DNA from: a virus
DNA: 56,092 bases
Strand: one strand, 5' to 3'
IMG/VR virus record: IMGVR_UViG_3300036851_000592
Location: 1-56,092 of that record
Shown: piece after piece, positions 11,945-55,908 of the stretch
Numbering within the stretch: the first letter of the stretch is position 1
How the letters are laid out: each line of letters begins with the position of its first letter
Translations under genes and position numbers: made by a program
The notes under the pieces: model-generated
Seen by the model: only the letters and a program-made list of their open reading frames with translations
Told to the model about the DNA's origin: nothing
Databases searched by the model: none

Positions 11945-12675
11945 CAGCCTGCCTCCACGAATGAAATGCTGGGAGCGCCCTGATACCAGCCGAACGGCTC
12001 CCATGGGAGCGACGTGCCGGCCTCAAGCCGCATGAGGCAGCGCGGCCGGTAGAAATCGAGCGGCGTGCCATCCGCCACGGCCTCGCGCAATGTCGGCCGG
12101 ATTGCCACGACATAGGTAACGTTCTGGCCATCGGTCGTGTCCTCAGGCGTGATCGAGTCAATGTCGGCGATTCCGTAGGCGCGGAAGTTTTTCGTCTCGT
12201 GTAGGAAGCTGAATGTCTCGCCGCCCTCAAGCCGGGAGCCATTGATCACCTGGAACGTGAGCGTGCCGGCGTTGAGCGCATGGGCGCCGACGAGTACCGC
12301 GTCGATGTTGCCCTGGCTGAAGCCGACGAGATCGGAAAAGAGCGCGCCATCCGAATAGGTAATACCGCCTATAGGCAGCATTGGCTCACCATCCGTCCCG
12401 AGTGGATAGGGCGCGACATAATCGGTCAGCATCGGAACAATCATCGTGCGGACGGAGCCATTCAGGATATTGCGCAACCGCTGCCAATAGCGATGCTGGG
12501 CCGGCACGAACACGGGGATGCGCTGATACTTGACCGACCAGCGGCCGCCGCCGGTAAAGTCGATCGCATTTGTGTCGCCATTGAGCGAGCGGCCGCCCTC
12601 GATCGCGGAGCCCAGGATATCAATCGACATTTCGGCCGGCGGAAGCATGGAGATGCTATAAGTCTCGATCGCCAT
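11944..12675 (-). CDS. Minor tail protein
   Basis: 243 residues, beta-rich, with no enzyme motifs. It contains RWSVKYQRIPVFVPAQHRYW and a C-terminal FVEAG. It directly follows the tape measure, the slot of the lambda gpM/gpL group that starts tail assembly. The start overlaps the tape measure stop. Function inferred from position. Confidence 0.6.
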   Translation of the reverse strand: MAIETYSISMLPPAEMSIDILGSAIEGGRSLNGDTNAIDFTGGGRWSVKYQRIPVFVPAQHRYWQRLRNILNGSVRTMIVPMLTDYVAPYPLGTDGEPMLPIGGITYSDGALFSDLVGFSQGNIDAVLVGAHALNAGTLTFQVINGSRLEGGETFSFLHETKNFRAYGIADIDSITPEDTTDGQNVTYVVAIRPTLREAVADGTPLDFYRPRCLMRLEAGTSLPWEPFGWYQGAPSISFVEAG

Positions 12676-15137
12676 CAGCCGGTGTCCTTCTGATAGCGGC
12701 TGCTTACCGCGCCCAAGGTGCGCTGCAGCTCCTTGCGCTGCTCGGCCGCCGCGATCATCGATTGCCGCGCGATAAGCTCGAGCGTGCGCTCGGTCGCGTC
12801 GCCCTGCACATTGATCTGAGGCCCGCCGATCGTAATGGGCGGGAGCCCGCCGGCACCGAACCGGACGGCGCGAGCGAGCGCGACGCCCGCGCGGCTCACG
12901 ACTCGCTCGCCGTCTTCCAGCACCGCCACGCGCTCATTCGGCCGGAGATTACCTCCATGCAGCCGCGGCGCTCCCGCAACCTGAGCCGCGCTGACGAGGC
13001 GCAGCGGCGTCCTCGTCGAGCCGACGATTCCGCCCTCGTGAAAGATGTTCGCAAGAAACGAGCCCGCCAGGGCGCCGACACCGCCAGTGTCCGTCCCTCC
13101 GAGCTTGAGAAATTCGGTGACAAGGTTGATTACATCGGGAATGGCGCCTCTGATGAGGTCACGCCATGTACCAGTCTTGGTCACGAGATCGGCAAGGCCC
13201 TGCCCGAGCGATTGCCCGAGCGCCTCCGATTCCTGCTGGAGGTCGGCCTGACCCTCTTTGACTTCGGCCGACTTGGCAGCCAGTTCGCCATAAATCTCCG
13301 ATTTGCGCTTGAGCGCGGCAAGTTCCTCGTCGGTCAGGGTGATGCCGGCGCGCTGCGCTTCGAGGAGCTTTTCCTGTTCGAAGCGATACGCCTCGGCCGC
13401 TGCGATCGCGTCGTGGGTCTCGCCTCCGAGCCGGCGCATGGCATCAGCGGTCGCATTGATTTGCGCGCGCGCGAGTTCCTGGTCAGCGCCCTCCATGAAG
13501 GCGAAGCCCTTGCCGGGAAGTTGCGGCCCGAAGGCTTGGCCTCGGGGCATTCCCGGCGTGCCGGCCGCACCCATGACGCGATCGATGTAGGCCCAAACGT
13601 CGCCGATCGAACGGCCGCCGCCGATGACGGTCGGATTGGCGGTCGCGGCCCGGCCGCCCAGGACCGATTCGGCGAGCGCGTTCGGGTCGGCCCTGAGCGC
13701 CGAGAGCGCGCCGCCGGCGCCGAGAAAATGTGCTGCGTAAAGATTCCGCTCGCTCGCGGCGAAGCCCGCGGACCTGAGCGCGGCCGCATTCTCCTTGGCG
13801 AGGAGTTCGATCATCTGGCGCGAGATCGCCGGATCTGTTCTGAGATCGAGCGCGCGCCTGCCCATCGCCGCCGCGACTTCCTCGCCGATTACCTTCGGGA
13901 TCAATCGCATCCAGGTCGACTCGATGAACTGCCCGTGCCCGGTCGCCGATGAAAGCGGATTGCGGATATCAGCAACACCGCGGCTCTCGACCTGGATCAG
14001 GCGATCGATGAAACCGGGCGGGAGGCCAGGTGCTGTGAACGGATCGGATGTAACCGGCACGCGCGTCCCGCGCGCGGTCTCGAACGGGTTGCGCGCGACG
14101 CCTGGCAGCGTGCGCGCTAGGACACCGCCGCGCCCGGTGCGCTCCCAGGCCGGTCCCATCTTGGAAAGTTCCGCATTGATGTCGATCAGATTCTGTTTCC
14201 ACTCCTCGAGGAGCGGAAGCCCGACGCCGGTCGCCATCGCATTGTCGATTGCGCGGATGAGCCGGAGCCGCTCTTCGTCGAGCTTGATTATTTCCCGATG
14301 GGGCCCTGCGCGGCGCTTCTGGTCTTCCTCGACCTGGCGCTGCACGGCGTCGATATGAGCGCCGATCTTTTCGGCCTCGACGATCGCGGTCAGGAGTCCG
14401 GCGCCAATATTGGTCTTGAGGCGATCAAAGCCCGCGGTCAGGCGGTCGTCGAGTTCGTCGGCCTTTTTGACGAGTTCCGTATCCATGACGACGCCGAGCC
14501 GGATGGCCGCCGCCTCCTGGTCGCGCAATGCCTGCGCGCCGTCCTGGAGGTAAGGCAGTGCCTCGGCGGCGCTGCGGCCAAAGGCGGACATGGCTATTAC
14601 GGATTTGTCGCCTTCGGTGCGAGCATTGTGGATCAGGTCCACGACATCGAAAAATAGCGCCTTGTTCGAGCGCATCTGGCCATTCATATCGCGGAGCGGC
14701 ACGCCGTTGGCGTCGAGGATTTCCTTGAGCTTGTTGCCCTCGGTCGCGGCGATGCCAAGCTCCTTGTTGAACTTGGTCATGATGCCGACGAGATCGTCCT
14801 GCGTTCCGCCGCCCTGGCGCGCGGCGAAAGTCAATGTCTGGAGATCCCGGATTGACAATTGCGCGCGCTCGGCCTGGTCTTTGACTTGAGCAATGTCGGA
14901 AATCACGCTCTTGATGAACACGCCTGCGCCAACACCGAGCAAGGCCGGTCCGGCCGCGCCGCGGAAGGAATCGAGCACCGAGACCGATCCGGCAAGTGCG
15001 CCGCGCTGAGCCCGGGCGATATCGTCGGCCACATCCTTGGCGAATACCGACGTCATCGCGCGGGTGCGCGCGAAGCCGGCGCGGAGCCCGGCGTCGTCGA
15101 GCGTGACAGGAATGCGGAGCGGGGCGACAGGCAGCAT
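12675..15137 (-). CDS. Tape measure protein with lytic transglycosylase-like domain
   Basis: 820 residues. The N-terminal part has Ala-rich helices and a hydrophobic glycine segment (GPALLGVGAGVFIKSVI). The middle (about 370-490) looks like an SLT/lysozyme domain: FIDRLIQVESRGVADIRN with a Glu in the right place, then GHGQFIESTWMRLIPKV and YAAHFLGAGGALSAL. The C-terminal part contains coiled coil and a Gly-rich region. It sets tail length and probably degrades peptidoglycan during entry. CRISPR spacer 6 matches 13413-13442 in this gene (29/30). Confidence 0.88.
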   Translation of the reverse strand: MLPVAPLRIPVTLDDAGLRAGFARTRAMTSVFAKDVADDIARAQRGALAGSVSVLDSFRGAAGPALLGVGAGVFIKSVISDIAQVKDQAERAQLSIRDLQTLTFAARQGGGTQDDLVGIMTKFNKELGIAATEGNKLKEILDANGVPLRDMNGQMRSNKALFFDVVDLIHNARTEGDKSVIAMSAFGRSAAEALPYLQDGAQALRDQEAAAIRLGVVMDTELVKKADELDDRLTAGFDRLKTNIGAGLLTAIVEAEKIGAHIDAVQRQVEEDQKRRAGPHREIIKLDEERLRLIRAIDNAMATGVGLPLLEEWKQNLIDINAELSKMGPAWERTGRGGVLARTLPGVARNPFETARGTRVPVTSDPFTAPGLPPGFIDRLIQVESRGVADIRNPLSSATGHGQFIESTWMRLIPKVIGEEVAAAMGRRALDLRTDPAISRQMIELLAKENAAALRSAGFAASERNLYAAHFLGAGGALSALRADPNALAESVLGGRAATANPTVIGGGRSIGDVWAYIDRVMGAAGTPGMPRGQAFGPQLPGKGFAFMEGADQELARAQINATADAMRRLGGETHDAIAAAEAYRFEQEKLLEAQRAGITLTDEELAALKRKSEIYGELAAKSAEVKEGQADLQQESEALGQSLGQGLADLVTKTGTWRDLIRGAIPDVINLVTEFLKLGGTDTGGVGALAGSFLANIFHEGGIVGSTRTPLRLVSAAQVAGAPRLHGGNLRPNERVAVLEDGERVVSRAGVALARAVRFGAGGLPPITIGGPQINVQGDATERTLELIARQSMIAAAEQRKELQRTLGAVSSRYQKDTG
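13413..13442 (+). other. Self-match of CRISPR spacer 6 (29/30)
   Basis: The first 30 bases of spacer 6 (55722-55751) match here on the plus strand; only the first base differs. The spacer is antisense to the tape measure gene. The two bases after the match differ from the array, which sets the spacer-repeat junction. The 5' flank is CGTC and the 3' flank ATCAG. Confidence 0.93.
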
Positions 15138-15741
15138 TATTTCTTGCGTCCTCCTCGCATCAGTGAGCGCATGGCCTTCTTGATATTCTGAGGAGTGGCC
15201 GGCACCAGCGATTTCTTATCGCTCTTTCCGGTGCCGAAGATGGAATCGAGCATGTCGAGCCGCCCTTCATATGCGAGGAGAATGCCGCTCAGGCTGGTGT
15301 TCAGCGTCTCCTCCTCTGTCCAGCCTAGCCATCCGGTTCCCACTTGGAACAACCACCTGAAGTGTTCCTCGTGGGTGATCAGTTTCCCGGGTCGGTCCCT
15401 CCGCCTTCAGCGCCCGGTGGTTTGGGCTGTTCAGAGCGGCCGCCAGTCTGGAGGCCCTGAATATATCGCGTCAGCGGCCGCACCAGATTATCGAGCCCCG
15501 TCCTGAAAACCTGTTCCTCGGCTTGCTCGAATTTGATGCCAGAGCCGGCCGAGACAATCTTGGCATAGGCGCTCAAATCGAACGCGGCGAGGCGATCATA
15601 TGCGAGCGCATACCCATTGAAATATTCGTTGATCGCCTTTGCCGCGGCGAGAGTTGGCCGCAACTTGACGGTCCCGCCGGCGAGATCGAGATCAATCTCG
15701 CCATAGCCGAGGACGGTCTCGGACTTCTTGTCCTCAGCCAT
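15137..15741 (-). CDS. Frameshifted tail chaperone GT (G plus T by -1 shift)
   Basis: Read from the G start (15741) to the slippery site at 15388-15382, then in the -1 frame to 15137. After the shift the frame gives LITHEEHFRWLFQVGTGWLG, joining smoothly to the T domain WTEEETLNTSLSGILLAYEG. No stop interrupts the shifted frame. The T part alone (15137-15352) has no convincing start, only an internal TTG. In lambda, G and GT chaperone tape measure and tail tube assembly; the same is expected here. Confidence 0.85.
15379..15741 (-). CDS. Tail assembly chaperone (G-like)
   Basis: 120 residues starting MAEDKKSETVLGYGEIDLDL. The N-terminal part (GTVKLRPTLAAAKAINEYFN) fits tail chaperones found between the tail tube and tape measure genes. 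The C-terminus is a flexible Gly/Pro-rich linker ending at a stop directly after a GGGAAAC slippery sequence. Most ribosomes should stop here to give G. A minority would shift into the T frame to give GT. Confidence 0.82.
   Translation of the reverse strand: MAEDKKSETVLGYGEIDLDLAGGTVKLRPTLAAAKAINEYFNGYALAYDRLAAFDLSAYAKIVSAGSGIKFEQAEEQVFRTGLDNLVRPLTRYIQGLQTGGRSEQPKPPGAEGGGTDPGN
15382..15388 (-). promoter_or_regulatory. Programmed -1 frameshift site GGGAAAC
   Basis: On the minus strand the heptamer is G GGA AAC in the G frame, the X XXY YYZ form and one base different from lambda's GGGAAAG. The G stop codon follows at once (15381-15379). Slipping back one base opens the T frame. A downstream stimulatory structure was not examined. 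Confidence 0.85.
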
Positions 15742-16202
15742 CAGTCAGATGCCTCCGTCTCCGTGATCGTCCCCGAGTCGATCTCGATATTGCAGTTGGA
15801 CGCGACGATCTGATTCGGGCCGCCGACATTCACGGTCTTGGAAAAGACCTTGCCCTTGAAAGTGAATGTCGTCGGCGTGGCGCCAGTCTGGTCGAGCGCG
15901 TCGTTCAGTTCGATCTTGAAGTTGTAGGCATAGTCCGAATCGCGCGCTTCGAGGAGGCGGATCTGGCCGACATCATCGGAGTCCTGACCGAGCTGCATGG
16001 CGAGCGCGCCGTCATCGAACGTGCCCTTGAATTTGCGCGTGCCACGCTGATCGAGACTGTTGTGGCGGATGACTTCGTATACCCGACCGAACTCGCCGAG
16101 GTTTACGATTTCGCCGACCAGCAGATAGTCTTCATCGGTTGCGGGAACCAAGGCGCGGGTGCCGATGTAAAGTTTCGACCCGGCCGAAGTGTGAACTGTC
16201 AT
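15741..16202 (-). CDS. Major tail (tube) protein
   Basis: 153 residues, beta-rich. It begins MTVHTSAGSKLYIGTRALVP, with the pattern LVGEIVNLGEFGRVYEVI and then RGTRKFKGTFDDGALAMQL, as in phage tail tube subunits. A C-terminal FTFKGKVFSKTVNVGG follows. It is the slot between the tail terminator and the G chaperone. It should polymerise into the tail tube. CRISPR spacer 5 matches 15797-15826 (29/30), on the sense strand. Confidence 0.85.
   Translation of the reverse strand: MTVHTSAGSKLYIGTRALVPATDEDYLLVGEIVNLGEFGRVYEVIRHNSLDQRGTRKFKGTFDDGALAMQLGQDSDDVGQIRLLEARDSDYAYNFKIELNDALDQTGATPTTFTFKGKVFSKTVNVGGPNQIVASNCNIEIDSGTITETEASD
15797..15826 (-). other. Self-match of CRISPR spacer 5 (29/30)
   Basis: The first 30 bases of spacer 5 (55656-55685) equal the reverse complement here except at spacer position 6 (A in spacer, G here). 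The change would be Gly to Ser in the tail tube protein, so the spacer probably derives from a close relative. The 5' flank on the protospacer strand is AATG. Confidence 0.93.
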
Positions 16203-16253
16203 AACCTTCGCTCCTTCCAGTTTCGCGCGGGCGCCATGGGCGCGCGGCGATGT

Positions 16254-16664
16254 TTAGGTTCGGTACATCACTTCGAACGTCAAGATGGCAACACCGTGCT
16301 TCTCGTCGCCCTCGCCATCGTAACCCATGCGCGTGCGGGCGAGAACGGTATTGAGCGCGAGCCCGCCCAGCCGTGGATTCGCAGCGATCACAGCCTCGAC
16401 CGGTTCGCATAGTCCGTCGAGCGTTTCGTCGATTCCCTCGACCTTCGCGATGTGCAGTTCCAGGAACACTGAGAGATCCCGCAATAGCCGCGGGTCATTG
16501 ACGTCCTGCTGGGAGTTTTCCTCATTCGTATAGATGAGCGCGACCGGCATTTCGGATTGCGCGGTGCGCCTTGTGCGCGTCATGAAAACGCGACCGGTCA
16601 GCGAAAGGACCGTGTCGACTTCGGCCGCGATCGCCTCGCGGATCAACTGGCGCTTGTGCGTCAT
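16254..16664 (-). CDS. Tail terminator (gpU-like)
   Basis: 136 residues. MTHKRQLIREAIAAEVDTVL, then the VFMTRTRRT basic strand and EMPVALIYTNEE, the layout of gpU-type tail terminators that cap the tube. A C-terminal AILTFEVMYRT strand completes the fold. The gene lies between the head-tail joiner and the tube gene. Its ATG overlaps the previous stop. Confidence 0.75.
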   Translation of the reverse strand: MTHKRQLIREAIAAEVDTVLSLTGRVFMTRTRRTAQSEMPVALIYTNEENSQQDVNDPRLLRDLSVFLELHIAKVEGIDETLDGLCEPVEAVIAANPRLGGLALNTVLARTRMGYDGEGDEKHGVAILTFEVMYRT

Positions 16665-16972
16665 GGCGCAAGCTCCAGGTCGATGACCATCATGCCTTCC
16701 GAGTCCTCACGGAAATCCTTCACGGAATAGTCGATCCCTTTGGCGGTGATCAGCGTCACACCGCGAACGAGTTCGTCTTCAAGATCGGCGATCCTGACCG
16801 CGAGCGTCGTCACCTTGGTCGACGTACCCTCCTCGCCCTGGAGCGTCGCGTAGTAATTCGAATCGTAGATGCCGGTCACGGTCTGGGGCAGGCCCGAGAC
16901 GCCGTAAGTGATCACCGCCTCGGTCGGGAAGGTGTTGCGGACGACCTGGTTGAGGTGATCGAAATCGACCAT
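16661..16972 (-). CDS. Head-tail joining protein (gpFII-like)
   Basis: 103 residues. Small beta-rich protein with TVTGIYDSNYYATLQGEEG and a conserved acidic C-terminal strand (GMMVIDLELAP). In lambda-like phages this slot, before the tail terminator, holds the FII connector that attaches tail to head. Called from size, composition and position. Confidence 0.65.
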   Translation of the reverse strand: MVDFDHLNQVVRNTFPTEAVITYGVSGLPQTVTGIYDSNYYATLQGEEGTSTKVTTLAVRIADLEDELVRGVTLITAKGIDYSVKDFREDSEGMMVIDLELAP

Positions 16973-16974
16973 GG

Positions 16975-17664
16975 CTATTCGCGCTCCATGATCATGTTCC
17001 GGGTATCGAGCAGCGCGCCGTCGCCGGCACCGGCGTAGCCGAGTCCGCGCAGAAACGCCGTGATGTCTTGCCGGGCACGTTCGTTCAGCACTTCAATGAT
17101 GAGACGCGGGTGCCAGCGCTTGAGCGTTTCGGCCGCGCCTTCCAATACGCGAAGCTCGAAGGTTTCAACATCAATCTTGATTGCCGAGACCCGACCGATA
17201 TCGAGCGAGTCGACGCGAACGGTCCTGACCCTGATGCGAGGCTCGCTCTTGCGGAGCAAGCTCGCCCCGCTGGTCAGGTGAACCTTGTCATTGAAACCGA
17301 TAGACGCGTTGCCATCCTGATTCGAAGCGGCCGCCTCGATGATCTCGACGTCTACGTGGTTCAGATGAGCGTTGTTTCGGATGCGCTCGCACATGACAGG
17401 CAATGGCTCGATCGCGATCGCGGTCGCGCCCATCTTCGCAGCGACGATCGAGAACACTCCGCTATAGGCGCCGATGTCGAGGACCGTTCCGCCCGAATGA
17501 CACATGGCCTGCCAAGCCTTCAGCGTGTCAGGCTCGAATGCGCCTTTGGCGCGCACATGGCCGCAGATGCGATCGTCATCGAGCATCGCCACGCACAGGC
17601 TTCCGGCTGGAACCGTCATGGCTTGCGGCGAAGCCGCTAGCGGCTTCGCCGCTACGCCGCCCAT
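16975..17664 (-). CDS. FkbM-family SAM-dependent methyltransferase
   Basis: About 229 residues from the ATG at 17664; the ATG at 17619 is an alternative start. Rossmann SAM-binding motif GGTVLDIGAYSGVFSIVAAK, then AIAIEPLPVMCERIRNNA and IKIDVETFELRVLEGA, all typical of FkbM methyltransferases that often methylate sugars. It closes a four-gene cassette with two glycosyltransferases and a Rossmann protein, between the capsid and neck genes. The target could be a virion or host-surface glycan (inference). Confidence 0.82.
   Translation of the reverse strand: MGGVAAKPLAASPQAMTVPAGSLCVAMLDDDRICGHVRAKGAFEPDTLKAWQAMCHSGGTVLDIGAYSGVFSIVAAKMGATAIAIEPLPVMCERIRNNAHLNHVDVEIIEAAASNQDGNASIGFNDKVHLTSGASLLRKSEPRIRVRTVRVDSLDIGRVSAIKIDVETFELRVLEGAAETLKRWHPRLIIEVLNERARQDITAFLRGLGYAGAGDGALLDTRNMIMERE
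17625..17652. repeat. Perfect 28-bp palindrome
   Basis: The 28 bases are their own reverse complement: GCGGCGAAGCCGCTAG followed by CGGCTTCGCCGC. It lies at the junction of the FkbM and glycosyltransferase genes and includes the latter's stop codon. As RNA it folds into a hairpin. There is no T tract, so a processing site or a scar from cassette insertion is as likely as a terminator. Confidence 0.9.
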
Positions 17665-18332
17665 GCCTGCTTCACCCAGCTTACGTCGCAGTTGTCGGGT
17701 TTGCGCATTCCCCCGAACGCAATGACCGAGCACCCACGCGGGGCGCGATCGGGATGAAGATCGAGATCCCGATAGGACATGAAGAAACCCGGAGGCGTCA
17801 CGTCTTGCAGAAGCGTCGCGCGCGGATGCAGAAGCTCGATGACGCGCTGATCTCCATACTGCGCGCAACGGCGCATCCATTCTTGAGCGTCGGGCTCGAA
17901 GCCGCGCCAGACATCGTCGCCGAAATTCCGGCCCATCGTCATGACGCAAGACCCGTAGCGGCATGGGTAGCTCGCGTGTCCGGCCGCGCGGGTGAAGTTT
18001 CCGCAGATGGCGAAGCCATCCTTATCCGCCGTCCGCTCGAGCGGAGTTATGTCGCCGATGACCACGGTGTCGAGGTCGAAATAAATGACGCGAGCGCCCG
18101 CGCGCCAGCTGGTATCGAAGAGCTTCATCTTGCCCCACCAGCCGATCAGCCGGTGATCGCCGATCGCGACCGTTTCGTAGCCGGCAAGCTCGTTCGGCTT
18201 GTCGGTCAAAACGACGAAGCGATGCGCGTGGACGAAATACCGCCTCACCATCGCGCGCAATCGATGCACATAGGCGACCGGGTATTTCGAACCGGTGCGA
18301 ACGCACGCGATTATGGTCTTAGGGTTTTCCAA
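17652..18332 (-). CDS. Glycosyltransferase with DxD motif
   Basis: About 226 residues from a TTG start at 18332. The long open frame upstream is out of phase with the neighbouring gene and unlikely to be coding. VIYFDLDTVVIGDITPL holds a DxD motif for metal and nucleotide-sugar binding, as in GT-A folds. FVVLTDKPNELAGYETVAIG precedes it. It overlaps the DUF115-like gene by a few codons, so translation is coupled. Donor and acceptor unknown. Confidence 0.7.
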   Translation of the reverse strand: MENPKTIIACVRTGSKYPVAYVHRLRAMVRRYFVHAHRFVVLTDKPNELAGYETVAIGDHRLIGWWGKMKLFDTSWRAGARVIYFDLDTVVIGDITPLERTADKDGFAICGNFTRAAGHASYPCRYGSCVMTMGRNFGDDVWRGFEPDAQEWMRRCAQYGDQRVIELLHPRATLLQDVTPPGFFMSYRDLDLHPDRAPRGCSVIAFGGMRKPDNCDVSWVKQAWAA

Positions 18333-18960
18333 GGAGCGCCAGGCCCTCCTCGATCGTAACCCGCGGGAACACCTTGATGCCGGAATAGGGACAGGCATTG
18401 AACACTTCGATCTTCGCTTCGGCCAGAGCCTTCGCCGGATGCGCGTAACATTCAGCCCAGGCCTTCCACGCCTTTTCGCTTTGCGTGCGTTTCTTGCCGT
18501 AGTGCTGCTCGTTGTGATGCCATTTGCCATCGGCGCTCTTGCCATAGTCATAGCCGAACAGCACGATCCGGCGCGGCCGCTTGAGGTAAGCAAGATTGAG
18601 CGCGCCATAGCCTGAGGTTCCGCCGGCCGCGATCGCTGTCGGAACTTTCGAAATCATCTGATGGTTGATGCGCAAAACGAAATTCACGTTCGGCAGGACG
18701 GGAAGCGTGTTCCGCTCGGCGACCGCCCACACGATCGGCATAGTCACCTGAGCCAGGCGCGGCGCCCATTCGATGTAGCGCGGCCCGTCGAGCCCGAATC
18801 CAAGGTCCGCCCATGGCATGTCGAAAATCGAGCCTTTGACCGCTAATACCCGCCAACGCGGGTCGCGGAACCGGTTAAGATCGAAACCAGCGAGCGACGT
18901 TCCGCCGGCGACGACGGCTAATGGCTTATCGCCCCAATCGGCCGGACCTACGTCGCCCAT
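18319..18960 (-). CDS. Rossmann-like protein (DUF115-like or sialyltransferase-like)
   Basis: 213 residues starting MGDVGPADWGDKPLAVVAGG, with GGAG upstream. It has a nucleotide-binding-like N-terminus (AVVAGGTSLAGFDLNRFRD) and a central INHQMISKVPTAIAAGGTSG, then RRIVLFGYDYG. This recalls DUF115 and CST-I-like sialyltransferase families that act in surface glycan synthesis. The position between two glycosyltransferases supports a sugar role. Precise activity unknown. Confidence 0.55.
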   Translation of the reverse strand: MGDVGPADWGDKPLAVVAGGTSLAGFDLNRFRDPRWRVLAVKGSIFDMPWADLGFGLDGPRYIEWAPRLAQVTMPIVWAVAERNTLPVLPNVNFVLRINHQMISKVPTAIAAGGTSGYGALNLAYLKRPRRIVLFGYDYGKSADGKWHHNEQHYGKKRTQSEKAWKAWAECYAHPAKALAEAKIEVFNACPYSGIKVFPRVTIEEGLALLGKP

Positions 18961-19688
18961 TGGTTTAGCTCCTTCATGAACTCTTGAGCGAACGGCACTT
19001 TTGAGAAACCCGGGACGCATGGCGATCCATCCGTGTGATGTACGATCTTCGGCTCTATAGCAGAGTCGGAGTAACCTGCGAGCCAATTCCAGGCAACCGG
19101 CAGATCGCCGATAAGGCGGTCCTCAAGCCAGCAGAAGCGATGAAGATCGCGGCCGGGCACCGCGTTCACGAGTTCTTTCGTGAGCGCGGCATTGGCCGCG
19201 TGAGCGCAGTTGAACAGCATCAGGCTCGACCAATTCTTACGCGGATATGCCGCCTGCGGCTGACCCGCCATCTTGACCGATGACGACGGAACGTGATCGT
19301 GCTTCACGCACATCACCGCGAAGCTCGAGTCGGCCGAGGCAAAAAGTTCCTCGAGATTCGCGCGCACGAGCATGTCGCAATCCATAAACAGCGCCCAGCC
19401 CTTGCGACCGGCCGCCTCGCGCACGGCGAGATGAGGGACAAGGAACCGCGAGATTGCGAATTCAGTTGCCATTCCGGCATCGCTGATCTCGTCCCACATC
19501 TGCCGGCGGCCGCGCTCGTCGACCGAATATCGCGTCGGCCGCCAGTACAAACCCTGCGCCCGAAGATCATCGAGCACGAGGCCATGAACCGGGATCGGCT
19601 CGACGAGATGCCGCTCGCAAGAGCGCCTCGCGACTGCGAACGCCGCGGCGTCGCGAGGGTCAAAGCCGATCCAGATACTGCGGTCCAC
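18948..19688 (-). CDS. GT-A fold glycosyltransferase
   Basis: 246 residues with a GTG start behind a GGGAGG ribosome site. WIGFDPRDAAAFAVARRSCE at the start and WALFMDCDMLVRANLEELF in the middle (DxD, residues DCD) match nucleotide-sugar glycosyltransferases. First gene of the glycan cassette after the capsid gene. It may glycosylate capsid or tail protein; no donor can be deduced. Confidence 0.75.
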   Translation of the reverse strand: MDRSIWIGFDPRDAAAFAVARRSCERHLVEPIPVHGLVLDDLRAQGLYWRPTRYSVDERGRRQMWDEISDAGMATEFAISRFLVPHLAVREAAGRKGWALFMDCDMLVRANLEELFASADSSFAVMCVKHDHVPSSSVKMAGQPQAAYPRKNWSSLMLFNCAHAANAALTKELVNAVPGRDLHRFCWLEDRLIGDLPVAWNWLAGYSDSAIEPKIVHHTDGSPCVPGFSKVPFAQEFMKELNQWAT

Positions 19689-19719
19689 GCGCGCGGGGCC
19701 TCCCTCTTCAAAAAAGAGG

Positions 19720-20778
19720 CTATGCGCGCCGGGCGCGCTGCAGCATTGCCGGGCGCGTGCAGAGGAAGAGCGGATAGCTGTAAACCTCGACCTTCACCCA
19801 TGCGCCGCGGTCGCGGTCAGGGATCTGCATGCCATAGACGGGCTGGCCCAGCGTGTTGATCCACGGCATGAACTCGGCCGGGCCCATGACGTGCTGAAAG
19901 ACGCCAGGCGCGTTGACCGGAAAGAACTTCGCCTTGTCAGTCGGAATGCCGACCGTCGAGGCATCCGCTGTCCCATCGGTCGCACCCTCGTCGTAATTGT
20001 CGGTGCCGCGATAGTTGTGCCAGTAGATCTTGCCGAAATAGAACGTGTCGAACTCGTTGGCCTCGCGAAGCTCGGCCGCCGCCGACCAGCTCAGATAGGT
20101 ATCGCGCACCTTGGGATGATCGACGAAGGCGTCCCAGAACGCATCGCCGACAAGCGCATGCACCTGCGTCGTAGGCATCCATGAGCCGGCCGCCGCGCGC
20201 TGCATCTGCCGGCGCACTTGGTTGCAAAGCCCGCGGATGTTCGTCGTCGCCGTGGTCAGCGCGAAGTTGATTTCAGTCGCCTGCGTCGCGCTCCACTCGG
20301 TAAACCAGTTTTCGAGTGTCGAGCCATCGGCGTCGAGCACGATGCCCTGGACGGCGCCGAGACGCATGTGCTCGAACGTGAGGCTGATGTCCGCCTGAAT
20401 GCCGTTCGCGCCCGTGTAGCGGCGCTGCACTTCCGCCATGACTTGCGACAGCTCGGTTTCTGACCCGAATTCGCGGATGCCGGTCAATTCGTCGGCCATA
20501 ATCGTGTCGCCCTTGGCGAGACGATGGATGCCGAAATTTCGGATATCGCGTTTCTCGGTCGTGCGCTGATCGATCGGGGCACCACGCTCGGTCGCCAAAA
20601 TAAGCTTGAGCACGCCGTTGCGCTGCTCGATCGCGACGTATTTGTTGCGGATGGGAACCGGATCGAACAGGCCGGGCATCGAACCCAGCATGGTCGGCCG
20701 GAACGGCTGACGGTTAAACGCGCCGGTCAGGGAGACCGTGTCAAACGCGTCCTGGTTGAAGATGTCCAACATGACCAT
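19720..20778 (-). CDS. Major capsid protein (gpE family)
   Basis: 352 residues. Starts MVMLDIFNQDAFDTVSLTGA; the segment RQPFRPTMLGSMPGLFDPVP and the C-terminal YSYPLFLCTRPAMLQRARRA are typical of the lambda gpE family (PF03864). It forms the shell after protease maturation. Flanked by the decoration gene upstream and, unusually, by sugar-transfer genes downstream. No N-terminal delta-domain extension is seen, in keeping with a separate scaffold. Confidence 0.92.
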   Translation of the reverse strand: MVMLDIFNQDAFDTVSLTGAFNRQPFRPTMLGSMPGLFDPVPIRNKYVAIEQRNGVLKLILATERGAPIDQRTTEKRDIRNFGIHRLAKGDTIMADELTGIREFGSETELSQVMAEVQRRYTGANGIQADISLTFEHMRLGAVQGIVLDADGSTLENWFTEWSATQATEINFALTTATTNIRGLCNQVRRQMQRAAAGSWMPTTQVHALVGDAFWDAFVDHPKVRDTYLSWSAAAELREANEFDTFYFGKIYWHNYRGTDNYDEGATDGTADASTVGIPTDKAKFFPVNAPGVFQHVMGPAEFMPWINTLGQPVYGMQIPDRDRGAWVKVEVYSYPLFLCTRPAMLQRARRA

Positions 20779-20808
20779 GATCGGAGTTCCTTTTCTCGAT
20801 GCTGGGCG

Positions 20809-21186
20809 TTAACGAGCGACGATGTCGATCGCCTTGAGCGCGGTCACGTAGGCCGCCTCTCGCGGGTTGTCGGTATCATCGGCAGGGATGGTGAGTTCGG
20901 AGAGATTGACGACGCTGTCGCGTGCCGTATAGACGGCGCCAGTGACGTCGCCATCGGTCGCGTCGACATTGTCGTACATCACTCCAACGGGCGCCGTGAT
21001 CACAGCGTCAGCGGAATTCAAGAGGCCATCCGCGGCGATGATCTTTCCGGCGCCATCAAGCTGCACGACCTGACCGGCGACGAGAACCTGACCGCTAAGC
21101 ACGGTCGCGGTTTCGCGCGAGAACTGAGGATCAGCCTCCCACACGATGTACTCGCCGGTGTGTTTGCCTTCAGTGAGGACAGACAT
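20809..21186 (-). CDS. Head decoration protein (gpD-like)
   Basis: 125 residues. HTGEYIVWEADPQFSRETAT followed by LSGQVLVAGQVVQLDGAGKI is the usual pattern of gpD-type head-stabilising proteins. It binds the expanded capsid at three-fold sites. Lies between protease/scaffold and capsid genes, as in lambda. CRISPR spacer 1 matches 20938-20967 (28/30), on the sense strand. Confidence 0.87.
   Translation of the reverse strand: MSVLTEGKHTGEYIVWEADPQFSRETATVLSGQVLVAGQVVQLDGAGKIIAADGLLNSADAVITAPVGVMYDNVDATDGDVTGAVYTARDSVVNLSELTIPADDTDNPREAAYVTALKAIDIVAR
20938..20967 (-). other. Self-match of CRISPR spacer 1 (28/30)
   Basis: The first 30 bases of spacer 1 (55390-55419) match the reverse complement here except at spacer positions 1 and 26. 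The position-26 change converts Thr to Ile in the decoration protein. The 5' flank on the protospacer strand is CAAT and the 3' flank GCCGT. Confidence 0.92.
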
Positions 21187-21242
21187 ATGTTGATCTCCTC
21201 GGTTTCAGAATTTCGATCTACCGCGCCGACCGGCGCTACGCG

Positions 21243-21692
21243 CTACTTACCGGCGAAGATGTTGGCCGTGGCGTTCACCTTCTTCGCGGCTTCGTCCCAC
21301 ATCGAATTGATAGATGCGCGATCGCTGCCGCCGCTTGCCTGATGCTGGCCTCTGATCGGCGTCGTCTCGCCGACCGCGGTCATCTTCGTGAAAAGCTGAG
21401 CGCGGACGTGCTCCATGCTGGCGCCCGAGGCGATGAATTGATCGGCAAGCTTCGCGTCGATCGCCGGGCACTGCTTGTGCGCGAGCGCCACCGCCGCGCG
21501 GATTTCCTTGCCGCTCTCGATGCGGGCTTTCGCCTGCTCGATGGTCACGCCTTCCTTGATCAGCGTCGCGGCCATCGCCGGAACGCCGGCGGTGGCGCAT
21601 AGCGTCGCGATTTCAGCGGCCGCGTTGGCGATCGCCTGAGCATCGACGGGTGCCGGCGGCGCGGCCGGCGCAGGAGTCGGAGTCGTCGTCAT
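21243..21692 (-). CDS. Nested scaffold protein (Nu3-like), internal in-frame start
   Basis: An ATG at 21692 in the protease frame is preceded by GAAGGAGAAATCCAAA, an ideal ribosome site at ideal spacing. It would yield 149 residues beginning MTTTPTPAPAAPPAPVDAQA: a Pro/Ala linker and a helical C-terminal domain shared with the protease. Lambda makes its Nu3 scaffold this way. Inferred from position and the ribosome site. Confidence 0.72.
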   Translation of the reverse strand: MTTTPTPAPAAPPAPVDAQAIANAAAEIATLCATAGVPAMAATLIKEGVTIEQAKARIESGKEIRAAVALAHKQCPAIDAKLADQFIASGASMEHVRAQLFTKMTAVGETTPIRGQHQASGGSDRASINSMWDEAAKKVNATANIFAGK

Positions 21693-22403
21693 TTTGGATT
21701 TCTCCTTCGGTTGACCGGCGGCGCGGGCGTCCGCCAGTTGAGCAATCATCAAGGCCGGATCGAAGTGCCCGGCTTTGGCCCAGACTTCGGCCTTCGCCTT
21801 GAGCGGCTCGGGCGCGCGCAGATAGGCGCGGAAATCGAACGCCGTTACATCCTCGGCCGGGTCTTCGATCTTGCCCGTGGCAAAGCCCGCCTCGATCGCC
21901 TCGTCGTCATCGAGCCAGGTTTCCTCACCCATGAGCTTCTTGCATTCAGCCTCGGTCTTGCCTGAGCGGCGCGCGTAGATTTTCGCCATCTGCAGATCCA
22001 TCTTGTCGAGCACCTTGGCGGTCATCCGGTGATCGTCGGCCGTGCCCCAGGTCATGCCCGAGCCGTTGTGGATCATGATCAGCGAACCGGCAGCCATGAT
22101 GATCTGGTCGCCGGCCATCCCGATCACCGAAGCGGCGCTCGCCATCAGCGAATCGTTGACGATCGTCACCTTCACGGCGCCGTCAGCCTTGTGCGCGACG
22201 AGCAGATTGTGAATAGCAACGCCCTCGGTTGCAAAGCCGCCGCCCGAATTGATGTGGACCTCGATATCGCCCGTGGTCTCGGCGAGCGCGTTCAACACAT
22301 CGGCGACAGTGAAGCCATTTTGGTCCCAATAATCGAAATATCCGACCGGGCCATAGAGATAGATCTTGCCATTTCTAATCAGACGGCTTGTCATCGACGA
22401 CAT
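21243..22403 (-). CDS. ClpP-type prohead protease with C-terminal scaffold
   Basis: 386 residues. The N-terminal 190 residues are an S14/ClpP-like serine protease: IEVHINSGGGFATEG, the nucleophile region SLMASAASVIGMAG, and LIMIHNGSG with the His. After about residue 215 an Ala/Pro-rich linker leads into a helical scaffold-like region. The layout equals lambda gpC/Nu3. The start overlaps the portal stop. It processes the portal or scaffold during head maturation. Confidence 0.9.
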   Translation of the reverse strand: MSSMTSRLIRNGKIYLYGPVGYFDYWDQNGFTVADVLNALAETTGDIEVHINSGGGFATEGVAIHNLLVAHKADGAVKVTIVNDSLMASAASVIGMAGDQIIMAAGSLIMIHNGSGMTWGTADDHRMTAKVLDKMDLQMAKIYARRSGKTEAECKKLMGEETWLDDDEAIEAGFATGKIEDPAEDVTAFDFRAYLRAPEPLKAKAEVWAKAGHFDPALMIAQLADARAAGQPKEKSKMTTTPTPAPAAPPAPVDAQAIANAAAEIATLCATAGVPAMAATLIKEGVTIEQAKARIESGKEIRAAVALAHKQCPAIDAKLADQFIASGASMEHVRAQLFTKMTAVGETTPIRGQHQASGGSDRASINSMWDEAAKKVNATANIFAGK

Positions 22404-23922
22404 CCTTCTTTGGCTGTTGCGCGACGCCGGCGACCGTCACCTTGCGCGGATCGCTATCGAGCACGAGGCCAAGTTCATCGGCGCGGCGATTGTCCTCGGC
22501 TATCTCTTCGTCGACGGTCTGAACCGCGTAGCCGCGCTCGGACACATGCGTCGCGCGCGACAGGAAGCCTGCGCGAACTTCGTCCCGGCGCGCGGCAACG
22601 TCCTGCGTCGGATTGATGTAAGGCCAAGCCTGAGGCGCCCATTTCACCCGCACGACGTCGCGAAGCGTTACGCCATTGCGCAACCTGATTTTGCCAGCGA
22701 GCCAGGCTGTCTCGGCCCAGCGCCTGAGGACAGGCGCGGCCCACTGAAAGACGACGAGGCCATGCTGATACATTTCGACGGCGCGGCGGAATTCGTTGAC
22801 GGCAGCGCGCCATGTCCGGTCGTTGACGTGCTTGTAGTTGCCGGAAAGCTGTTCAAACAGAATGCCGGCCGCGACCGCGACGCGGCGTTCCTGACCTTCC
22901 ATGAAAGATTCGTAAGAATCTTCAAGTTTCGGCGGGTCGGAGAAGGTGATCTCCTGATCAGCGCGCAATAAATTCATGAGGCCAGGCTCGAGGCTCGCGA
23001 TTGCGACGCCGTCCTCATTGGCGTCGCCTTGACCTGAGAGAATCTCGTTCTCGTTGCCAGTCTGCGGGCCGCCTCTGACGAAACCGGTGAACAGCGCTCC
23101 GATCTGCTGTTTGACAAGTTGCGCGTCGTCATACTTGTCGAGATCGTGGAGCTTCATGAGCGCGCGTGTTAGCCACGGCTCGCCGCGGATTTCGCCCGGC
23201 CGCCGCACCTGGGACAATTGCAACACCTCGCTCGCAGGCACCCTCACGGTATCGGCCGAGAAGGCGAAGCCAAGCATCCCGAAATCGAACGGATGCTGGC
23301 GATACATGTGGTAAGCCACGCGCCGGTCGAGCCGATCGAATTCTATTCCCTGGCGGATGATGCTGTTGGGTCCGACCCACTCGTTCTTTTCGTTCGGGAC
23401 GAATTCCGACTCGACCACCTGAAGCTGAAGCGGAACGACGAAGCCATCATCGAGCGCGCGCACGCGGAATCGGGTGAAACAATCGCCGCCCTCAAACATC
23501 GAGCCGACCGCCGTCGCCTGCAGACCATAGAAATCCTGCCGGCCGTATGAGTCGCATTCCGCGCTCCAGTCCTCGAACAGATCGACCAGTTCCCGGTTCA
23601 GGTCTTTGTCCTTCGTGCGGAATTGCGGCGTGATGCCGGTGCCGACGAAATTGACGACTGTCGTGCGCTTGGCATTATCGGCCAGGCCGTCTCGCCTGAT
23701 CTTGTCGCGCGAGCGCGCGCGCAAGGTGGGAAGCGCCGCGCCGAGCAGGCTATTGGGCCCGCTCGATGGCGCGACCCAATTGGAGGTGCGAGGACTCACG
23801 TAGCCGCCGGCGTCATAGCCGGTGTTGAGCCCGGCCGATCGGACGATTTCCGAGCGAATCGCCGGAACATAGACTTTCGAGCCTTTGATTCGGTAGCGCA
23901 TCGCTGCCACCTGATCGGGCAT
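22375..23922 (-). CDS. Portal protein (gpB family)
   Basis: 515 residues of the lambda portal family (PF05136). Seen: SRDKIRRDGLADNAKRTTVV (family hallmark), NFVGTGITPQFRTKD, and later VRRPGEIRGEPWLTRALMKL. It forms the dodecameric ring through which DNA is packaged and to which the neck binds. Located between gpW-like and protease genes; the stop overlaps the protease start. Confidence 0.93.
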   Translation of the reverse strand: MPDQVAAMRYRIKGSKVYVPAIRSEIVRSAGLNTGYDAGGYVSPRTSNWVAPSSGPNSLLGAALPTLRARSRDKIRRDGLADNAKRTTVVNFVGTGITPQFRTKDKDLNRELVDLFEDWSAECDSYGRQDFYGLQATAVGSMFEGGDCFTRFRVRALDDGFVVPLQLQVVESEFVPNEKNEWVGPNSIIRQGIEFDRLDRRVAYHMYRQHPFDFGMLGFAFSADTVRVPASEVLQLSQVRRPGEIRGEPWLTRALMKLHDLDKYDDAQLVKQQIGALFTGFVRGGPQTGNENEILSGQGDANEDGVAIASLEPGLMNLLRADQEITFSDPPKLEDSYESFMEGQERRVAVAAGILFEQLSGNYKHVNDRTWRAAVNEFRRAVEMYQHGLVVFQWAAPVLRRWAETAWLAGKIRLRNGVTLRDVVRVKWAPQAWPYINPTQDVAARRDEVRAGFLSRATHVSERGYAVQTVDEEIAEDNRRADELGLVLDSDPRKVTVAGVAQQPKKDVVDDKPSD

Positions 23923-24134
23923 CAGCTCAGCCCCTTCGAAGTGGCGAAGCGCACGGCCTTCGTTCGCCGTATGCCCGCGGCACCGGCGATGTCCGCCTGC
24001 ATGATTGCTTGGAGTTCGAGCATATCCTCGAGGTCCGGGTAATCGACTTCGCGGTCGGTGTATTTGACGCGCTTAACGCCCTGGGCGATAGCCTGGGTAA
24101 GGGCATCGAGCTGGGCCTGGGTATAAATCGCCAT
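23922..24134 (-). CDS. gpW-like head-tail joining protein
   Basis: 70 residues starting MAIYTQAQLDALTQAIAQGV, then KRVKYTDREVDYPDLEDMLE, the classic gpW pattern (AQLDALxxAIAxGxxxVxYxDR). gpW seals the portal after DNA packaging. The ATG at 24134 is preferred over the longer frame because the family starts there. First gene of this late segment; its promoter should lie in 24135-24443. Confidence 0.87.
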   Translation of the reverse strand: MAIYTQAQLDALTQAIAQGVKRVKYTDREVDYPDLEDMLELQAIMQADIAGAAGIRRTKAVRFATSKGLS

Positions 24135-24443
24135 CGTTGCGTAATATCGCGAAGATGGTCCTAGCACAAGGGGTGGGGCCTCCACCGGCTGGCCTGCCAA
24201 GACTTAGTGGGTGCTATCACGGGAAGCGCCCTGAGCCGATGGAGGTAGCGGGCATCCTGACCAATCATGATGCGAAAAGCAATGGCATTGCTCGGATGTG
24301 GACTTGCGCCGGTGCGGCATCAGAGCGAAGGTCCACCTTGCGTCCAACTAGTGGGCGTGAACCTGGCGAACACAAAATCGCTTCCCGCGCTTTTCGCCAA
24401 AGCGATCCTTAATGGACGGGAGTGGTTTGAAAGGAAACTAGCC
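24135..24443. promoter_or_regulatory. Divergent intergenic region with a palindromic control element
   Basis: About 309 bases between the late gpW gene and the plus-strand island. It holds a 15-bp palindrome AGCAATGGCATTGCT at 24278-24292, followed by CGGATGTGGACTTGCGC and, 17 bases on, AGCGAAG. This is a diverged copy of the 109-bp elements at 25045 and 50087. The palindrome is probably an operator and TTGCGC a -35-like box (inference). Start 24444 has AAAGGAAAC upstream. An open frame from 24267 is not convincing. Confidence 0.65.
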
Positions 24444-24791
24444 ATGAAATGGACTCTGTTCAAAGACGCGATGCCGGCCATCGGTCAGCCGCTCGTCATT
24501 TTGTATTTGGACTTCGCCGAGGTCGGATTGACATTTTGTCATACCCGCACCGGATGGCTCGAAGAGCGTGGATTCGGCAACGTCATCATGGATGCCGGCA
24601 ATCAATTGAGCGATTACGAACATGCCACACTCGAGAAGTGGGGGGCTTGGGCGTATCTTCATGAGGCCACGTCCGAAGCAATCGCTGGATGTGCGTTCGC
24701 CAAGGGGCACACCGAAGTGATCACCTTCGAAGGCACCGGGATGACGGTCTCGGTCGAGACTAACGAGATGCTCGAATACGCTACGGTGTAG
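24444..24791 (+). CDS. Hypothetical small protein of the plus-strand island
   Basis: 115 residues starting MKWTLFKDAMPAIGQPLVIL, with AAAGGA upstream. It is acidic and mixed alpha/beta, with GTGMTVSVETNEMLEYATV at the end. The N-terminal pattern (W-x-x-x-x-D-A-x-P-x-x-G-x-P) resembles short phage DUF551-like proteins. First gene behind the palindromic element. Function unknown. Confidence 0.6.
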   Translation: MKWTLFKDAMPAIGQPLVILYLDFAEVGLTFCHTRTGWLEERGFGNVIMDAGNQLSDYEHATLEKWGAWAYLHEATSEAIAGCAFAKGHTEVITFEGTGMTVSVETNEMLEYATV

Positions 24792-24793
24792 TC

Positions 24794-25012
24794 GTGATCA
24801 GGATCGACAGGAATATTCCGCTTCCGCCATACAAAGCCAAGGGAAGGAGACCGGGCAACATTTACCCGTTTCGCATGATGGCGATCGGAGATAGCTTTTT
24901 TACCGAGAACGTCCGGGCCTTCAATTCTGTGCCGAATGGATTCGGCCGATGGGAGTCTCGAACGATCGAAGAGAAGGGCAAGCGAGGCATCAGGATTTGG
25001 CGGATCGGCTGA
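24794..25012 (+). CDS. Small phage protein (MIRIDRNIPLPP type)
   Basis: 72 residues with a GTG start two bases after the previous stop. The N-terminus (IDRNIPLPP) and central YPFRMMAIGDSFFTENV fit a small family common in proteobacterial phages, role unknown. CRISPR spacer 4 is identical over 30 bases to 24841-24870 in this gene. A strong terminator follows directly. Confidence 0.65.
   Translation: MIRIDRNIPLPPYKAKGRRPGNIYPFRMMAIGDSFFTENVRAFNSVPNGFGRWESRTIEEKGKRGIRIWRIG
24841..24870 (-). other. Exact self-match of CRISPR spacer 4 (30/30)
   Basis: The first 30 bases of spacer 4 (55590-55619) equal the reverse complement of this stretch. The next two array bases (GG) do not match (TT here), so the repeat probably begins with GG in the later units. 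The 5' flank on the protospacer strand is GCGA and the 3' flank TTGGC. The spacer is antisense to the 24794 gene. Confidence 0.96.
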
Positions 25013-25044: not shown

Positions 25045-25153
25045 AAAAAAGCAATGCCATTGCTCCGAATCGACTTGCGCAAAACGGCGATTAGAGCGAT
25101 GTTGTTTTCATTGAACGGGGCAGCGCCCCACCTGAGGAGGACCAGCCGATGAC
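25045..25153 (+). promoter_or_regulatory. 109-bp control element, copy 1 (operator, promoter-like box, leader)
   Basis: Identical over 109 bases to 50087-50195. It starts with A6 and a 15-bp palindrome AGCAATGCCATTGCT (25050-25064). Then comes CTTGCGC, a possible -35, and it ends in a strong ribosome site GAGGAGG before the ATG of the next gene. Both copies end inside the start of a gene beginning MTI, and both sit where a new transcript would begin. Promoter activity is inferred. Confidence 0.75.
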
Positions 25154-44500: not shown

Positions 44501-44567
44501 ATCGTTGAAGCGGAGCGAGCTAGCGCACTCGACATCGAAATCGAAGTGCTTTCAGAATTGAACAAGT

Positions 44568-44600: not shown

Positions 44601-44613
44601 AAGGGGATTTCCG

Positions 44614-54025: not shown

Positions 54026-55348
54026 ATGGGAAACTGGCAGGACAATAAACCGGAGGAAGTGAGGCGCGTCTATCTCTATGGCGCGTTCCCGCCCAAGGAT
54101 GGCCTCGCCGATTTCGACAAGGCTCAGGAGTTGAAGCGAGAGATGTGGGCCGAGCTGTGCGCTATCTATCGCCAGTATGTCGCCGATCTAGCGCTCGTGC
54201 CCGCCGCCGCCGCGCAAGCTGTCGCATCTGGCGATAAGGCTATAATTCGCGAAGCGGAAAAGGAGATGAAGTCCGATCTGTCGGCACGCCTATACGCGCG
54301 GATGGCGGATGCGCGCCGCAGCGTCGCCGCGAAGGGGCTGCACAGCGGCGACTACAACGCTGTGACATTCCAATTCATGGGAGCGGCGCGCGCCTCGAGG
54401 AAACGCGGAGCCCTTCCGGGCGACGGTGACAAGCCGATGGAATCATACTGCGGCGCGGCCGTCGTCAATCAGGTCAAACGGTTTTCGCCCGCGCGGCTTT
54501 TGCACCACACCGAAACTCGGATTGAATTCATCGCGCGACCGCGAAGCAAGTCCCGCCGCGGCCGGCGCCTATTGGCGAGGCTGCACATCACCGTGCGGGG
54601 GCCTAAAAATCCTCTCGGTCACAAGGTACTATCGGTCGATTTCATCATGCACCGGCCGCTGCCTCCCGACGCTGAAATCGTCGAGGTACGGTTGATGCGC
54701 AAGACAATCCCCGCCACCACTCGCGACCGCAAGTCCGCGCTGTGGACGAAATGGCAAGTCGCGATCGCCGTGGCCACTCCCCGGCGTGTTCACGACCGCG
54801 CGGATAGGATCGCAGGCCTTGCTCTCACTTGGGCCGACGACGGATCTGGCGAGCAGGAATTTTGCGTCGTGGCGGAGAATTCCGGCCGCACCGTAACGCA
54901 TGTGATGGAGGCTGGCCATGCCGAGACATGGAAGAGGCTGACAACGCAAAAAGAAACCGCAAGCACGCTCGATGGCGAAGCGCAGGCCAGCGCGCTCCAT
55001 GCCTGTGCGGTTCATGAACGACGTCTCGCGCTGAGGCGCCGTGAGTTTTTGCGCGTCACCGCCGCGCGGCTGACAACTGTCTACAGCGTGATCGCCATCG
55101 AGGACATGTGGCTAGCCGGTATGGGCGTGAAAAAGCATCTCGCGCCGGCCCTGTTTCGGCAGAATCTCAAAAACGCGGCGAAGGTGCGCGGAACGGAAAT
55201 CCTGGAAGTCAAATTGCCCAAGCGAGAAGGAAGAAGCGCGCGGGATTGCGCCAGAATGCTGCTGGAGGAGGCGGAAAAATTCGACGGCGACGACGGAATG
55301 TTGTCCGGCGACGAAGAGAAAAGTCAAGTACATGAGGCGGTTGCATGA
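54026..55348 (+). CDS. Compact Cas12m-like type V CRISPR effector candidate
   Basis: 440 residues, smaller than described Cas12m proteins (about 550-650). Residues 15-50 (VYLYGAFPPKDG, KREMWAELCAIYRQY) match the N-terminal wedge-like start of type V-U1/Cas12m proteins as I recall them; LSVDFIMHRPLPPDAEIVEV at 202-221 fits their VHRWLPADADI block. RuvC-I is at 261-272 (RIAGLALTWADD), with Ala266 where Asp is expected. RuvC-II is YSVIAIEDMW with Glu359; RuvC-III may be RSARDCARML with Asp407. There is no CxxC zinc ribbon. The gene follows copy A by one base (GGAGAGGAG site), and the array starts 8 bases after its stop. Expected to bind, not cut, DNA. Confidence 0.72.
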   Translation: MGNWQDNKPEEVRRVYLYGAFPPKDGLADFDKAQELKREMWAELCAIYRQYVADLALVPAAAAQAVASGDKAIIREAEKEMKSDLSARLYARMADARRSVAAKGLHSGDYNAVTFQFMGAARASRKRGALPGDGDKPMESYCGAAVVNQVKRFSPARLLHHTETRIEFIARPRSKSRRGRRLLARLHITVRGPKNPLGHKVLSVDFIMHRPLPPDAEIVEVRLMRKTIPATTRDRKSALWTKWQVAIAVATPRRVHDRADRIAGLALTWADDGSGEQEFCVVAENSGRTVTHVMEAGHAETWKRLTTQKETASTLDGEAQASALHACAVHERRLALRRREFLRVTAARLTTVYSVIAIEDMWLAGMGVKKHLAPALFRQNLKNAAKVRGTEILEVKLPKREGRSARDCARMLLEEAEKFDGDDGMLSGDEEKSQVHEAVA

Positions 55349-55355
55349 AAGCCAC

Positions 55356-55908
55356 CCCTCACACCCTGCATCGGGGGGATGCCGATGACTTCGACGCGAC
55401 CGATGGCGACGTCATTGGCGACCCCTCACACCCTGCATCGGGGGGATGCCGATGACCGCATCATCCGCTCAGCCGAAAGCTTCGGCACCCCTCACACCCT
55501 GCATCGGGGGGATGCCGATGACTGAGTTTCTTGCTTTGGAGGCTGAGATACCGGCCCCTCACACCCTGCATCGGGGGGATGCCGATGACAACGGGTAAAT
55601 GTTGCCCGGTCTCCTTCCCGGCCCTCACACCCTGCATCGGGGGGATGCCGATGACTCGGCAGCCCGAATCAGATCGTCGCGTCCAGGCCCTCACACCCTG
55701 CATCGGGGGGATGCCGATGACATGGGTCTCGCCTCCGAGCCGGCGCATGGCGGCCCTCACACCCTGCATCGGGGGGATGCCGATGACCGCATCTGGCGAA
55801 GCGCCCGGCCCATGCGGGGCCCTCACACCCTGCATCGGGGGGATGCCGATGACCTTGACGCTGACCTTCTCGCCAGCGGCCGCGGTCCCTCACACCCTGC
55901 ATCGGGGG
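55356..55908 (+). CRISPR. Type V-like CRISPR array: 8 full repeats, 1 truncated, 8 spacers
   Basis: Eight identical 34-base repeats begin CCCTCACACCCTGCATCGGG and end GATGCCGATGAC, at 55356, 55423, 55489, 55556, 55622, 55688, 55754 and 55820. A 22-base truncated repeat is at 55887-55908. Spacers are 32-33 bases as drawn; self-matches suggest 30 bases with the last 2-3 belonging to the repeat. Inside the repeat, CATCGG and CCGATG form a 6-bp stem with a 7-base loop near the 3' end, the handle position for Cas12 crRNA. The degraded last repeat places the leader at the cas-gene side. No cas1, cas2 or tracrRNA was seen. Confidence 0.97.

What the first reader, a model, noticed from the sequence alone, without database searches (positions are those of the whole stretch)
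13413..24870. Spacers match both coding and template strands of genes
Spacers 1 and 5 equal the sense strand of their genes, while spacers 4, 6 and 8 equal the antisense strand. A system that reads mRNA would need antisense only. Mixed strands argue for DNA targeting. Blocking transcription would fit a nuclease-dead effector, with hits in late structural genes.
Basis: partly seen in the sequence, partly recalled or inferred. Interest (0 to 1): 0.72.

Follow-up and report, generated by a model that had tools for sequence, protein, structure and literature searches.

The report
Phage-borne miniature dead Cas12m array
A phage carries a very small, probably non-cutting CRISPR (Cas12m-like) protein and a guide array in which half of the guides nearly match the phage's own genes, most likely so that it can silence close relatives that compete for the same cell.

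Summary
The interval 13413-24870 is not the array. It spans four places in a circular ~56 kb phage genome that match spacers of an array at 55354-55908. Spacers 1, 4, 5 and 6 match 29/31, 30/30, 29/30 and 29/30 (0 of 200 shuffles each). Two are sense, two antisense. The claimed spacer 8 match is not real (22/31; 14 of 200 shuffles reach it). Three of the four genes are structural.

The 440-aa gene just upstream is a degraded Cas12m (subtype V-M) relative. A second phage carries a 37%-identical homologue with its own array. Both lack the zinc finger and probably the RuvC-I Asp. The repeats keep the Cas12m crRNA pseudoknot, which fixes the crRNA strand. DNA binding without cutting is thus the best mechanism, and homology supports it better than four strand observations do.

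The matched sites lie in the phage's own genome, share no PAM-like base, and 3 of 4 mismatches fall at positions 1-6. I read them as non-permissive copies of sites in sibling phages: superinfection silencing, not self-repression. No sibling target was found, so this last step is inferred.

The parts
54026..55348 (+). Effector, 440 aa, trimmed Cas12m-type protein; keeps M208-HRPLP motif; RuvC-I reads AGLALTW (Ala266 probably in place of Asp); RuvC-II Glu359; no zinc finger
   Evidence: PADLOC Cas12f 2.4e-12, Cas12u1 1.6e-9; two-phage profile against PDB: Cas12m 8.3e-7; alignments
55354..55908 (+). CRISPR array, nine 36-nt repeats (the last truncated), eight spacers, starts 5 bases after the effector stop codon
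   Evidence: repeat structure
55390..55420 (+). spacer 1
55457..55486 (+). spacer 2, no match in own genome
55523..55553 (+). spacer 3, no match in own genome
55590..55619 (+). spacer 4
55656..55685 (+). spacer 5
55722..55751 (+). spacer 6
55788..55817 (+). spacer 7, no match beyond chance in own genome
20937..20967 (-). own-genome match of spacer 1, 29/31, mismatches at 1 and 26, 5' flank AAT; in head-decoration gene 20809-21186 (-), sense
24841..24870 (-). own-genome match of spacer 4, 30/30, 5' flank CGA; in 72-aa gene 24794-25012 (+), antisense
15797..15826 (-). own-genome match of spacer 5, 29/30, mismatch at 6, 5' flank ATG; in major-tail gene 15741-16202 (-), sense
13413..13442 (+). own-genome match of spacer 6, 29/30, mismatch at 1, 5' flank GTC; in tape measure gene 12675-15137 (-), antisense

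Best explanation
A phage-borne cassette: a trimmed Cas12m-type effector followed directly by its array, with no leader and no Cas1. The transcript is probably processed by the effector itself. The effector then binds double-stranded DNA by crRNA pairing and blocks transcription without cutting, so guides to either gene strand can work. The spacers are most likely aimed at sibling phages that enter the same cell, at structural and other genes. The carrier's own copies of four of these sites are exempt because they lack the PAM and/or carry seed mismatches. Shown here: array, matches, homology, repeat structure, loss of the zinc finger, absence of a shared flank. Inferred: crRNA processing, DNA binding, loss of catalysis, PAM dependence, sibling targets.
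For: Effector related to Cas12m: PADLOC, two-phage profile against PDB with Cas12m as best two hits. Repeats of the window, the second phage and a true Cas12m locus share a stem plus 6-bp pseudoknot, 26 of 26 cells paired, 5 of 6 pseudoknot pairs changed on both sides, the form published for Cas12m2. Cas12m proteins bind dsDNA without cutting and silence with guides to either strand. The four own sites share no base at -4 to -1 and none reads TTN; 3 of 4 mismatches fall at positions 1-6, p 0.027. Spacer versions keep the genes' frames open, as for alleles from a relative. Virus mini-arrays against siblings with altered own loci are known.
Against: No sibling phage with the targets was found. 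Spacer 4 is a perfect own match, exempt only if its flank is not a PAM. The PAM of this effector is unknown. The seed bias rests on four mismatches. One of six pairwise alignments puts a conserved Asp260 opposite the RuvC-I Asp, so residual nuclease activity is not excluded. The second phage's two spacers match nothing held.
Confidence: 0.6

Rival explanations
1. Self-regulation: the effector represses the phage's own structural genes early in infection or in a carrier state, and the own-genome sites are the real targets.
For: 4 of 8 spacers match the own genome at 29-30 of 30-31 bases, one perfectly; 3 of 4 in structural genes; a non-cutting effector would tolerate it.
Against: No shared PAM-like base at the four sites, three with mismatches, two of them at position 1; no tyrosine integrase, so no sign of lysogeny to maintain; the second phage's array has no own match.
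Confidence: 0.15
2. Relic or passive collection: the degraded effector no longer works and the array is decaying.
For: Zinc finger and probably RuvC-I Asp lost; last repeat truncated.
Against: Open frame of 440 aa; repeats otherwise identical in the core; a second, 37%-identical phage homologue keeps the same layout, HRP motif and pseudoknot with compensating changes, which decay would not keep.
Confidence: 0.12
3. Anti-CRISPR by mimicry: repeats and truncated effector sequester a host V-M system's parts.
For: Repeat mimics are a known phage strategy (PMC11656645 passages); Cas12m loci occur in Alphaproteobacteria.
Against: Eight full spacers, four with strong phage matches, are not needed for mimicry; repeat differs in sequence from the one host-side repeat seen.
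Confidence: 0.08
4. RNA targeting of mRNA.
For: Spacers 4 and 6 are antisense.
Against: Spacers 1 and 5 are sense; the relatives bind dsDNA (PMC11013384, PMC10442227).
Confidence: 0.05

Closest known systems
CRISPR-Cas12m, subtype V-M (V-U1)
   Same: Homologous effector, 36-nt repeat with stem and pseudoknot, array beside the effector gene on the same strand, no Cas1 found
   Different: 440 aa instead of about 590-600; no zinc finger; RuvC-I Asp probably lost; carried by a phage with spacers against its own kind
Virus-borne mini-CRISPR arrays (e.g. SPV1/SPV2, PMC6858448)
   Same: Spacers resembling sequences of relatives, own copies altered, presumed superinfection exclusion
   Different: Those use the host's Cas proteins and one to three spacers; this one brings its own effector and eight spacers
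TldR (phage-encoded dead TnpB regulators)
   Same: Phage-encoded, RNA-guided, RuvC-degraded TnpB/Cas12-line protein
   Different: TldR works with a single guide RNA and no CRISPR array (recalled; only the search listing of PMC13418256 was seen)

Membership tests
Cas12m / subtype V-M | Effector homologous to Cas12m | tested here: met
   (include a true Cas12m in the profile)
Cas12m / subtype V-M | 36-nt repeat forming stem plus pseudoknot with C at -1 | tested here: met
   published form
Cas12m / subtype V-M | TNB zinc finger | tested here: not met
   absent in both phage proteins; described for Cas12m2
Cas12m / subtype V-M | RuvC triad of a known Cas12m type | tested here: inconclusive
   RuvC-I probably Ala or Ser, alignment not unique; RuvC-II Glu or Gln
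Cas12m / subtype V-M | 5' T- or C-rich PAM | tested here: inconclusive
   own sites AAT, CGA, ATG, GTC; true targets unknown
Cas12m / subtype V-M | dsDNA binding without cleavage | not testable with these tools
   needs bench work
Virus mini-CRISPR array | No cas gene, one or two spacers, host-type repeat | tested here: not met
   own effector and eight spacers
TldR | Single guide RNA, no CRISPR array | tested here: not met
   CRISPR array present; definition recalled

The most novel reading that the evidence does not exclude
The phage uses its own dead Cas12m array as an RNA-guided timer that weakly binds its own tape measure, tail, head and 72-aa genes (mismatched, PAM-poor sites), so that late expression is delayed, while siblings with better sites are shut down fully.
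Probability: 0.12. Interest if true: 0.85.

Novelty: new variant of a known kind. Interest (0 to 1): 0.6.

Why it matters
If right, phages carry trimmed, naturally non-cutting Cas12 effectors of about 440 aa that work without the zinc finger and use them against siblings by silencing instead of cutting. That would show how little of Cas12 guided DNA binding needs, offer a very small natural silencing protein, and give a case where a virus's own genome records which PAM and seed changes confer exemption.

Tried and rejected
Effector single-sequence searches in viral contigs, phages and plasmids: nothing. Exact repeat core in viral contigs: one contig, an unrelated phage, chance hit. Portal search in genome contigs with one sequence: nothing; with the alignment: 80 of 272 loci kept, best 50% identity, none with a spacer match. 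Alignment A3 scan found nothing. DNA motif scan: 3 contigs; L114 and L115 are real homologues but one phage (identical where they overlap), L116 is chance. Protospacer scans: one search found only the identical fragment already held as L013; one search found two chance matches. Array against phages: nothing; against plasmids: three weak matches, E 0.01 and above, not followed. L114 array against phages: two weak records, E 0.4, not followed. L095 array against plasmids: nothing. Cas12u1 model in 385 alphaproteobacterial genomes: 13 at 1e-8, one intact full-length (L095), one with a broken frame (G318), the rest C-terminal TnpB-like matches, not used. Phage effector in 397 genomes of one order: one match at 5e-4, a 176-aa frame with a stop, not used. 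Two-phage alignment in 385 and 398 genomes: none. AlphaFold model too poor (pLDDT 48.5), so no fold search was run. hhalign gave only a 42-column match around HRPLP to L095 (85). The 12-base match of spacer 7's start inside the effector gene (92) is compatible with chance.

Full report
What is there. The window is an IMG/VR virus record whose first and last 105 bases are identical, so it closes to a 55,987-base circle. It encodes a tailed phage: large terminase, portal, head protease, head decoration, major tail and tape measure proteins. My first count gave each spacer two bases more; the final boundaries follow the homologous 36-nt repeats.

The observation. Every spacer was slid along both strands of the rest of the window. 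Spacers 1, 4, 5 and 6 match at 29/31, 30/30, 29/30 and 29/30; 0 of 200 shuffles reach these. The best matches of spacers 2, 3, 7 and 8 are reached by 138, 200, 13 and 14 of 200 shuffles. Strands: spacer 1 sense in head decoration, 5 sense in major tail, 4 antisense in a 72-aa gene with a DUF7303 match, 6 antisense in tape measure.

What the effector is. PADLOC models place it with Cas12f and Cas12u1. A scan for its HRP motif brought in a second phage (L114/L115, one phage in two records) with a 448-aa homologue, E 1e-54, 37% identical in the alignment, again with an array directly downstream. A profile of these two, searched against 177,635 solved-structure sequences, finds Cas12m first (8.3e-7) and UnCas12m4a second (2.9e-4). 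A profile that also holds a true Cas12m (L095) gives 2.8e-58 and 2.7e-23, partly by construction. Against it the phage proteins lack the four-cysteine zinc finger. They keep MHRPLP; by motif, not by a structural alignment of mine, this corresponds to His269-Arg270 of Cas12m2, which read C(-1) of the crRNA and may take part in maturation (PMC10442227, passages and section 7). RuvC-I reads AGLALTW here and AGLSLTW in the second phage. Of six pairwise alignments to L095's IGVDIGF, three put Ala or Ser opposite the Asp, the other three a gap, a Gly, or once Asp260. RuvC-II is Glu here and Gln in the second phage. Loss of cutting is therefore likely, not shown.

Which strand is the crRNA. The repeats of the window, L114 and L095 share a CCC/GGG stem and a six-base pseudoknot between loop and 3' end. 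Of 26 counted cells 26 pair, five of six pseudoknot pairs change on both sides, and sliding the partner by one to three columns drops pairing to 33-54%. Six-base matches at this place arise in 204, 113 and 135 of 20,000 shuffles of the three repeats. The published Cas12m2 crRNA has this form, with the guide 3' of the repeat (PMC10442227 section 7). This fixes the crRNA as the plus strand of the window, and with it the sense and antisense calls.

Strand and mechanism. Two sense and two antisense sites are what strand-blind DNA binding predicts and are awkward for mRNA targeting, but n is 4. Published work carries more weight: GoCas12m reduced sfGFP expression from promoter and coding targets without loss of transformants, and protected E. 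coli against several phages, for some with guides to one strand only (PMC11013384, passages and sections 36 and 38).

Are the own-genome sites the targets? Cas12m2 needs 5'-TTN (PMC10442227) and six tested Cas12m proteins T- and C-rich PAMs (PMC11013384). The four own sites read AAT, CGA, ATG and GTC; no position from -4 to -1 is shared by all four, and the base at -1 differs each time. Three of the four mismatches fall in positions 1-6 (p 0.027; small numbers). One difference from the own genome is synonymous, three change one residue each, none makes a stop, as expected if the spacers come from homologous genes of a relative. Virus mini-arrays with spacers against relatives and altered own loci are known (PMC6858448, passages), and subtype V-M is reported from plasmids and some prophages (PMC11656645, passages). 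I therefore favour sibling silencing with own-site exemption. Against this: spacer 4 is a perfect own match, the PAM is unknown, no sibling genome with the targets was found, and the second phage's two spacers match nothing held.

How spacers arrive. Neither phage has a Cas1 match and neither array has a leader-sized gap after the effector gene, so spacers probably come by recombination or from a host's machinery. This phage shows no tyrosine integrase; the second does.

Novelty. The kind (V-M, virus-borne arrays) is known. The trimmed, zinc-finger-less phage branch and the half-self-matching array are new as far as searches of an open-licence library show. Subscription papers such as Wu 2022 and Al-Shayeb 2022 were not read, so the branch may be mentioned there.

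Noticed in passing
53817-53985 and 55949-56092 continuing at 106-130: The effector-plus-array cassette lies between two direct copies of a 169-nt stretch (166 of 169 identical). Loss of the cassette by recombination would be easy, and the contig ends fall in this repeat.
   Followed up: partly
25045-25153 and 50087-50195: A 109-nt stretch is repeated exactly at two distant places, upstream of genes.
   Followed up: no
34244-35533 (-): A replication-initiation protein whose middle matches HNH endonucleases, perhaps an intein or insertion.
   Followed up: no
30641-31924, 35576-36154, 48781-50136: Three DNA methyltransferases in one phage: ParB-domain N6/N4, MT-A70 and C5 type.
   Followed up: no
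43562-47300 (+): Neighbouring DHH phosphoesterase, DUF5131 and HerA-like ATPase genes, function of the set unknown.
   Followed up: no
54223 (+): The first 12 bases of spacer 7 occur inside the effector's own gene, possibly chance.
   Followed up: partly
55354-55886: The first two bases of the repeat change along the array from AC (first copies) to GG (later copies).
   Followed up: no
17652-18608 (-): A glycosyltransferase gene (phrog_1962, 7e-26) sits inside the structural gene block.
   Followed up: no
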